Positions 6,883 through 7,044 of a stretch of DNA of 32,592 nt are shown here, in pieces. The notes beneath the pieces were generated by a model that made no database searches, was not told the DNA's origin, and saw nothing but the letters and a program-made list of their open reading frames with translations. The DNA lies in the NCBI GenBank assembly GCA_023262005.1, contig JALREL010000042.1:1-32592 (forward strand). Reading direction: 5' to 3'. This DNA is from Sphingorhabdus sp. GTDB lineage: Bacteria; Pseudomonadota; Alphaproteobacteria; Sphingomonadales; Sphingomonadaceae. The translations under genes and the position numbers were made by a program. The number at the start of each line of letters is the position of its first letter. Position 1 is the stretch's first letter.

Positions 6883-7044
6883 GAGTCTTCCGGACTCGCA
6901 GGTCAAGCGATTTTGGAGGCCGCGACTCGTTGGAATCCCTAGCGGAATCGCAAATCTGGGCGGAACGAAAGGAGTCCGGCACAAGATATGGAGTCTGGCG
7001 ATTCCAAGCGGACTCAACCCCTAGTGGTGTTGCCCGAAAGACTC
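6883..7044. promoter_or_regulatory. Cluster of ten GANTC methylation sites upstream of ccrM
   Basis: GANTC occurs at 6883, 6893, 6924, 6933, 6945, 6972, 6991, 7000, 7011 and 7040 (first base of each), ten sites in 162 bp where about 0.6 would be expected by chance at even base composition. Successive spacings are 10, 31, 9, 12, 27, 19, 9, 11 and 29, many near multiples of about 10. TTGGAATC (6930-6937) recurs inverted as GATTCCAA (7000-7007). A TTGACC at 6906-6901 on the minus strand could be a -35 box for ccrM, with two sites in the following spacer; the -10 is poor. Caulobacter ccrM is known to have GANTC sites in its promoter/leader; here the number is far higher. Confidence 0.85.

What the first reader, a model, noticed from the sequence alone, without database searches (positions are those of the whole stretch)
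6883..7044. Ten GANTC sites in 162 bp directly upstream of the GANTC methyltransferase gene
Seen: ten GANTC sites lie between rnhB and ccrM, where about 0.6 would be expected, with spacings that cluster near multiples of 10 bp, and TTGGAATC recurring as an inverted copy. Known: Caulobacter ccrM has GANTC in its promoter/leader whose methylation state affects expression, and GcrA acts at methylated GANTC promoters. Inference: the array works as a counter of hemimethylation that resets ccrM expression after the fork passes, or as a titration site for GcrA or CcrM.
Basis: partly seen in the sequence, partly recalled or inferred. Interest (0 to 1): 0.75.

Follow-up and report, generated by a model that had tools for sequence, protein, structure and literature searches.

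The report
Methylase gene's own-target regulatory element
The cluster of DNA-methylation sites in front of this bacterium's cell-cycle methylase gene is real: it is a precisely spaced control region conserved across the family Sphingomonadaceae, most likely letting the enzyme's own marks regulate its production, although no protein binding or methylation has been shown.

Summary
Ten GANTC sites lie at 6883-7044, upstream of ccrM (minus strand), where the genome's own density predicts 0.20. It is not one uniform array but three parts. (1) A core: CTTGAC with GANTC at +8/9 and +19 from TTGAC; TTGAC-N13-16-GANTC also precedes ccrM in 6 of 7 loci from other Sphingomonadales families and 12 of 28 from other orders. 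(2) A rigid ~88-bp distal element (6960-7048): four GANTC sites with fixed centre bases, two inside a 49-bp dyad. A model of it matches 301 of 313 same-family genomes and 0 of 83 from other families of the order. (3) A variable middle, with CtrA boxes in many relatives and three extra GANTC sites here.

The distal element lies whole helical turns from the inferred -35 box (33, 44, 54 or 64 bp; nothing at 35-41, 46-52 or 56-63 in 100 new loci), so it probably carries a regulator that contacts RNA polymerase at ccrM. GANTC inside each half-site makes methylation-sensitive autoregulation the likeliest function. That is inferred; the binding protein is unknown.

The parts
5694..6827 (-). ccrM, GANTC adenine methyltransferase gene (start taken at the ATG at 6827; 6836 is also possible)
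   Evidence: NCBIfam CcrM model E 2.7e-183, below that model's cut-off; 80 named relatives fetched
6883..6887 (-). Proximal GANTC, +19 from TTGAC (GACTC)
   Evidence: GANTC in 61 of 81 aligned loci, centre C in 53
6893..6897 (-). Proximal GANTC, +9 from TTGAC
   Evidence: GANTC in 34 of 81 at exactly this column; offsets 8 and 9 are the common ones
6902..6907 (-). CTTGAC, inferred -35 element of the ccrM promoter; no TATAAT-like -10 was found after it
   Evidence: at least 90% conserved columns; column counts after TTGAC; consensus scan finds no classical promoter
6924..6949 (-). Three middle GANTC sites (6924, 6933, 6945), lineage-specific, in the region that carries CtrA boxes in many relatives
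   Evidence: GANTC in only 3, 6 and 3 of 81 loci at these columns; 0 TTAACC in the window's middle region
6960..7048 (-). Distal conserved element, about 88 bp
   Evidence: alignment A1; model R1 matches 301 of 313 same-family genomes
6963..6967 (-). CGTTC, promoter-side edge of the distal element
   Evidence: GTTC is at least 90% conserved in A1
6972..6976 (-). Distal site 4, GACTC
   Evidence: 49 of 81, centre C in 48
6979..7027 (.). 49-bp dyad: two half-sites GACTCAAnATCTnGTGG pointing outward, 15 bp between the two GANTC sites
   Evidence: model hits the opposite strand at the same place; half-site consensus from 145 of 181 loci; both window half-sites score highest in the own-genome sample
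6991..6995 (-). Distal site 3, GACTC, in the right half-site
   Evidence: 68 of 81, centre C in 68
7000..7004 (-). Spacer GANTC, poorly conserved
   Evidence: 10 of 81
7011..7015 (-). Distal site 2, GAGTC, in the left half-site
   Evidence: 59 of 81, centre G in 59
7040..7044 (-). Distal site 1, GAGTC
   Evidence: 74 of 81, centre G in 74
7068..7670 (-). rnhB, upstream codirectional neighbour; not part of the element
   Evidence: NCBIfam ribonuclease HII; in 40 of 81 loci rnhB is more than 500 bp away (28) or not found in the flank held (12), and the upstream region still aligns

Best explanation
This is the composite control region of ccrM. RNA polymerase uses a promoter with CTTGAC as -35 and two GANTC sites in the stretch where the -35/-10 spacer lies, read (inferred) by GcrA-sigma70 in a methylation-dependent way. 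About 44 or 54 bp upstream of the -35 box (53 in the window) ends a Sphingomonadaceae-specific 88-bp element. Its core is a 49-bp dyad with a GANTC in each half-site, flanked by two more GANTC sites. A regulator, probably binding as a dimer or multimer, sits there on a fixed face of the helix relative to polymerase, like a class I activator or a phased repressor. Because its half-sites contain CcrM targets, its binding should change when the replication fork leaves the sites hemimethylated and again when CcrM remethylates them, so CcrM adjusts its own transcription. In this lineage the middle carries three more GANTC sites, with no TTAACC CtrA box there and no perfect DnaA box: nearly a GANTC-only version. 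Shown: anatomy, conservation, symmetry and helical phasing. Inferred: the promoter assignment, binding of a protein, methylation sensitivity and the direction of control.
For: Density: 10 sites against 0.20 expected; in 81 loci GANTC is 15.5-fold denser upstream of ccrM than elsewhere in the same loci, while the 15 other palindromic controls range 0.33-3.5. Centre bases, which the GANTC target leaves open, are fixed: G 74/74, G 59/59, C 68/68, C 48/49. Distal model: 301 of 313 same-family genomes, 0 of 83 others of the order; in all 30 genomes whose loci were checked (31 loci, the best-scoring) it lies upstream of ccrM. In 24 of 24 genomes picked because they had two or more hits, and in the own genome, a hit on the opposite strand falls on the same place. 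Distance from element to TTGAC, first 81 loci with one anchor: 32-33 (2), 42-45 (56), 52-55 (21), one unplaceable (77, block score 0.6), one with two TTGAC (38, 44); none at 46-51 (with a looser anchor gave 35, 38, 41-45 and 52-55). A further 100 loci: 33-34 (7), 42-45 (64), 53-55 (28), 64 (1), best period 10.6 bp, R 0.93; the TTGAC-to-ccrM distance of the first set as control gives R 0.36. The 44/54 class needs 5 changes on the best tree, at least 3 on starred branches. Core shared by 6 of 7 loci from other families of the order and 12 of 28 from other orders, with 0 and 1 occurrences in the remaining 26 and 102 kb. Caulobacter TSSs with GANTC between -35 and -10 form one cell-cycle activation class (PMC4287350, passages). 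gcrA fragment in this genome.
Against: No methylation, binding or expression data exist here. The 109 loci used for replication were among the best-scoring of the 301, so site conservation in them is biased (the distance to TTGAC is not in the model). Loci are related; the naive Rayleigh p overstates the phasing, and counted as independent changes the support is modest (five on the best tree plus the 33 and 64 rungs, each change with about a one-half chance of keeping phase). Four of the 100 loci had two TTGAC and were assigned by the preceding C or the nearest rung. Twelve family members lack a detectable element yet keep ccrM, so it is dispensable there. Site 2 is lost in 22 of 81 loci. No binder is known. 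No -10 is identifiable.
Confidence: 0.62

Rival explanations
1. The distal element is primarily a binding site of a factor that does not sense methylation; its GANTC letters are just part of that factor's recognition sequence, and methylation is incidental.
For: Centre bases are fixed, which a pure methylation target would not need; sites 2 and 3 form a dyad with long flanks. In the Sphingomonas clade site 2 is lost and a perfect DnaA box sits in the adjoining spacer, so that GANTC is dispensable (19 of 81 loci have a DnaA box in the block, 3 of these keep site 2).
Against: Outer sites 1 and 4, the proximal pair and the lineage-specific extra sites put GANTC again and again at this one promoter while GANTC is depleted elsewhere.
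Confidence: 0.25
2. Titration: the cluster is a sponge that soaks up CcrM or GcrA.
For: High local density.
Against: Ten of roughly 3,300 genomic sites; rigid spacing, fixed centre bases and helical phasing to the promoter.
Confidence: 0.04
3. The element is a structured RNA leader, attenuator or the rnhB terminator.
For: It contains an inverted repeat.
Against: RNAalifold predicts 0 pairs on 81 sequences; no Rfam match up to E 1 in 5600-7700; no terminator-like site inside it; the region is kept where rnhB is distant or not found; CTTGAC lies downstream of it.
Confidence: 0.04
4. DnaA/CtrA control explains the region and GANTC is secondary.
For: The CtrA-like motif GTTAAC[CA]AT is 328-fold enriched; perfect DnaA boxes in 84 of 181 loci and none in 531 kb of background; Brilli et al. 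predicted such sites upstream of ccrM in alphas (PMC2877005, section 8 and passages).
Against: The window's middle has no TTAACC and its promoter region no perfect DnaA box, while the GANTC element and core are present.
Confidence: 0.05

Closest known systems
Caulobacter crescentus ccrM autoregulation and CtrA-activated ccrM promoter
   Same: ccrM as a gene controlled by GANTC methylation ('most probably', PMC3973325, passage) and by CtrA (PMC2877005, passage).
   Different: Here there are ten sites, a phased distal dyad and no TTAACC box in the window's middle region; the distal element was not found in 83 genomes of other families of the order.
GcrA-sigma70 methylation-dependent promoters
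   Same: GANTC in the inferred -35/-10 interval; gcrA fragment in the genome.
   Different: Binding untested; a distal dyad does not appear in the passages read.
MucR-occluded hypomethylated GANTC promoters (PMC5172544, passages)
   Same: Several GANTCs in one promoter whose methylation competes with a bound regulator.
   Different: Not reported at ccrM in the passages read; no MucR motif was tested here.
Dam-sensitive switches such as pap/Lrp and agn43/OxyR (recalled, not from a call)
   Same: Methylation targets embedded in regulator sites.
   Different: Here the regulated gene is the methylase itself and the regulator is unknown.

Membership tests
GcrA/CcrM methylation-dependent promoter | GANTC between -35 and -10 | tested here: met
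   offsets +9 and +19 from TTGAC in the window; at least one of 8, 9 or 19 in 70 of 81 loci and 93 of 100 new loci. The -35 assignment itself is inferred
GcrA/CcrM methylation-dependent promoter | gcrA and ccrM in the genome | tested here: met
   PF07750 over cut-off, gene cut by a contig end; ccrM intact
GcrA/CcrM methylation-dependent promoter | GcrA binds and activates in a methylation-dependent way | not testable with these tools
   needs methylation data and ChIP
CtrA-activated ccrM promoter | CtrA box (TTAACC) near the -35 | tested here: not met
   0 in the window's middle region; present in 52 of 81 loci
DnaA-controlled promoter | perfect DnaA box | tested here: not met
   none in the window's upstream region (sequence); 84 of 181 loci have one
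Class I-like activator site | helically phased distance to the promoter | tested here: met
   33/44/54/64-bp ladder, R 0.93 at 10.5 bp in 100 loci, R 0.87 in 80 loci of the first set; kinship not corrected for in R
Class I-like activator site | contact with RNA polymerase alpha | not testable with these tools
   biochemistry required
Structured RNA element | conserved base pairs | tested here: not met
   0 predicted pairs; no Rfam match

The most novel reading that the evidence does not exclude
Sphingomonadaceae carry a dedicated methylation-reading operator at ccrM: a still unknown, family-specific regulator (or a multimer of GcrA) binds the dyad GACTCAAnATCTnGTGG, senses the methylation state of GANTC sites inside its half-sites, and from a fixed helical face switches the methylase gene on after the fork passes and off once CcrM has remethylated it.
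Probability: 0.4. Interest if true: 0.82.

Novelty: new variant of a known kind. Interest (0 to 1): 0.64.

Why it matters
ccrM timing sets how long alphaproteobacterial DNA stays hemimethylated, yet how the gene senses its own product is poorly resolved in what I could read. A family-wide operator with exact geometry gives a defined DNA target for finding the protein that reads it. It also gives a clean test (half-turn insertions, non-methylatable GANTC variants) of methylation feedback outside Caulobacter.

Tried and rejected
Trade-off between CtrA boxes and middle GANTC sites: seen in the first 81 loci (Spearman -0.50, Fisher p 0.006), not significant on phylogenetically independent pairs, and absent in 100 further loci (rho 0.01, Fisher p 0.81). 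Dropped.

RNA structure: none. Classical sigma70 promoter in 6780-7120: none; one terminator-like site at 6782-6799, inside ccrM and on the other strand. A plasmid copy of the region: no match. More copies in the own genome: only the ccrM one, at E up to 10 (the genome is 82% complete). Other half-sites in 230 kb of own genome: besides the element's own two, one at score 12 or more, against 3 in one shuffle. TTGGAATC inverted copy: not conserved. First-set distances of 35 and 38 came from uneven block ends; with one anchor L026 is 33 and L038 is 32 (weak block), and L067 cannot be placed. Replication-origin reading: not tested here; PMC8116508 saw no clear position pattern for the analysed genes in Sphingomonadales apart from cckA and chpT (passages).

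Full report
OBSERVATION. The window is contig C170 of a 2.55-Mb, 234-contig genome, 82% complete; by CcrM its nearest named relative is a MAG labelled uncultured Sphingorhabdus (94% identity). Ten GANTC sites lie at 6883-7044 between ccrM (5694-6827, minus strand) and rnhB (7068-7670, minus strand). The window holds 40 GANTC in all where shuffles give 142. A 230,464-bp sample of the genome has 1.28 per kb, so 0.20 are expected in 162 bp; the next densest windows in the sample hold 4.

CONSERVATION. I fetched 80 Sphingomonadaceae ccrM loci (the best 80 of at least 583) and compared 81 upstream regions of up to 260 bp, the window included. They hold a median of 6 GANTC (range 1-10), 22.7 per kb against 1.47 per kb in the rest of the same loci, a 15.5-fold ratio. 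The 15 other palindromic NN-N-NN patterns range from 0.33 to 3.5. Four of the 81, the window among them, have ten.

ANATOMY. The alignment shows that the sites are not equivalent. Four distal sites are conserved: 7040 in 74 of 81 loci, 7011 in 59, 6991 in 68, 6972 in 49. Their centre bases, which the GANTC target leaves open, are G, G, C and C in 74/74, 59/59, 68/68 and 48/49. Around them are conserved non-GANTC letters: ACACCAC, ATnTnGTG and CGTTC. The block is 87-89 bp in 76 of 81 loci. The two inner sites are the inner ends of a dyad, GACTCAAnATCTnGTGG on either side of a 15-bp (131 loci) or 14-bp (14 loci) spacer; 145 of 181 loci have the intact pair. The four other distal or middle window sites (7000, 6945, 6933, 6924) are GANTC at those columns in only 10, 3, 6 and 3 of 81 loci. 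The TTGGAATC inverted copy belongs to these.

SPREAD. A sequence-only model of the block matches 301 of 396 genomes of the order. All 301 are in the window's own family: 301 of 313 there, 0 of 83 in other families (75 of the 83 are not listed, and I read them as other families because the sorted list had already passed the last same-family row). In the own genome the only second hit, up to E 10, is the opposite strand of the same place. In 24 genomes picked because they had two or more hits, all 24 have an opposite-strand hit on the same place; one (G169) also has a partial hit about 0.9 kb away. So it is a dyad, and single-copy in the 25 genomes looked at closely, that partial hit aside; other genomes with two hits were not inspected. 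In 31 loci (30 genomes, the best-scoring) it lies just upstream of ccrM. Of the 12 family members without a hit, all have ccrM, and by eye 11 of the 12 show TTGAC followed by GANTC upstream.

PROMOTER. CTTGAC is at least 90% conserved. Relative to TTGAC, GANTC starts at 8, 9 or 19 in 70 of 81 loci (19 in 61; of the other 11, 4 have offset 6 only and 7 have none) and in 93 of 100 new loci (19 in 92). This places both sites between -35 and -10 if CTTGAC is the -35. No TATAAT-like element follows. TTGAC-N13-16-GANTC precedes ccrM in 6 of 7 loci from other Sphingomonadales families and in 12 of 28 loci from other orders (the 28 best-scoring of 41 matching genomes outside the own family, of 56 searched there), with 0 occurrences in 26 kb and 1 in 102 kb of the remaining sequence. 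In Caulobacter, TSSs with GANTC between -35 and -10 form one temporal class (PMC4287350, passages), and GcrA recruits polymerase to methylated promoters (PMC7403470, passages).

HELICAL PHASING. In the first 81 loci, measured from one anchor at the CGTTC end, the distance to TTGAC is 32-33 bp in 2, 42-45 in 56 and 52-55 in 21; one locus (L028) has two TTGAC (38, 44), and one (L067) has no recognisable block end and reads 77 (an earlier measurement with uneven block ends gave 35 and 38 for L026 and L038). I then tested 109 loci from the model search; the model ends before this interval, so it cannot bias the distance. Nine duplicates of the first set were dropped. The other 100 fall at 33-34 (7), 42-45 (64), 53-55 (28) and 64 (1), best period 10.6 bp; four had two TTGAC and were assigned by the preceding C or the nearest rung. 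Collapsing similar sequences leaves 57 with the same rungs. The TTGAC-to-ccrM distance of the first set, a control, is not phased (R 0.36). On a CcrM tree (quick method) the 44/54 class needs 5 changes, at least 3 on starred branches. So the distance has changed repeatedly by about whole helical turns. The naive p-value (3e-38) ignores kinship; counted as independent changes (five on that tree, plus the 33 and 64 rungs, which I did not place on a tree) the evidence is suggestive to good, not overwhelming.

OTHER INPUTS. CtrA-like boxes (GTTAAC[CA]AT, 328-fold enriched) are common; TTAACC is in the middle region of 52 of 81 loci. Perfect DnaA boxes occur in 84 of 181 loci, against 0 in 531 kb of background. 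They sit mainly at two kinds of place: about +28 from TTGAC, just after GACTCA (mostly in the new loci), or inside the distal block (Sphingomonas clade). Brilli et al. (PMC2877005; section 8 and passages) already discussed DnaA and CtrA sites upstream of ccrM, and wrote that more GANTC sites in a promoter did not by themselves allow a conclusion on control. The window has neither a TTAACC box in its middle region nor a perfect DnaA box.

MECHANISM. The distal element looks like an operator for a regulator that needs a fixed face of the helix relative to polymerase. Since a CcrM target sits in each half-site, methylation-dependent binding is the natural prediction, and with the proximal GcrA-type core it would make ccrM transcription a function of its own methylation state. 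Precedents: protein occlusion of promoter GANTCs by MucR (PMC5172544, passages) and the statement that GANTC methylation most probably affects Caulobacter ccrM (PMC3973325, passage). Whether the regulator activates or represses cannot be told.

LITERATURE. Searches listed no paper whose title or shown abstract start describes this element: 59 papers, 20 listed; 5; 1; 32, 12 listed; 1; 2; 12; 56, 12 listed. Only the passages and the one section named above were read. The library lacks most subscription papers, including Haakonsen 2015 and Wu 2018.

LIMITS. No methylation, binding, transcription-start or expression data. Replication loci were among the best-scoring matches, so their site conservation is biased upward. 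The binder is unknown.

Noticed in passing
window 30019-30068: Three GANTC sites in 50 bp directly upstream of an ArsR-like regulator ORF (29662-30015, minus) beside arsenate-reductase-like and glyoxalase-like ORFs; names are from reading the ORF translations, not from a family search.
   Followed up: no
upstream of ccrM in relatives, e.g. L106, L221, L230: A perfect DnaA box at a fixed place about 28 bp downstream of TTGAC, immediately after the proximal GACTCA, in about half of the 100 new loci; it would overlap the start region and suggests DnaA repression or timing of ccrM.
   Followed up: partly
L254:3110-3186 and L260:1009-1146 (own genome): The only other 162-bp windows with four GANTC in the 230-kb sample; the first is intergenic between a TetR-like ORF and a membrane-channel-like ORF, the second lies in the start of a monooxygenase-like ORF (names from reading the translations).
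   Followed up: partly
L141 (G386:C21:24273-25358): A second ccrM homologue with one in-frame TAG in a family member that also has an intact ccrM.
   Followed up: no
G000:C179:2-130 (L171): The genome's gcrA is only a fragment at a contig end; the same Pfam model also rings in Sulfolobus acidocaldarius among the controls, which looks odd.
   Followed up: no
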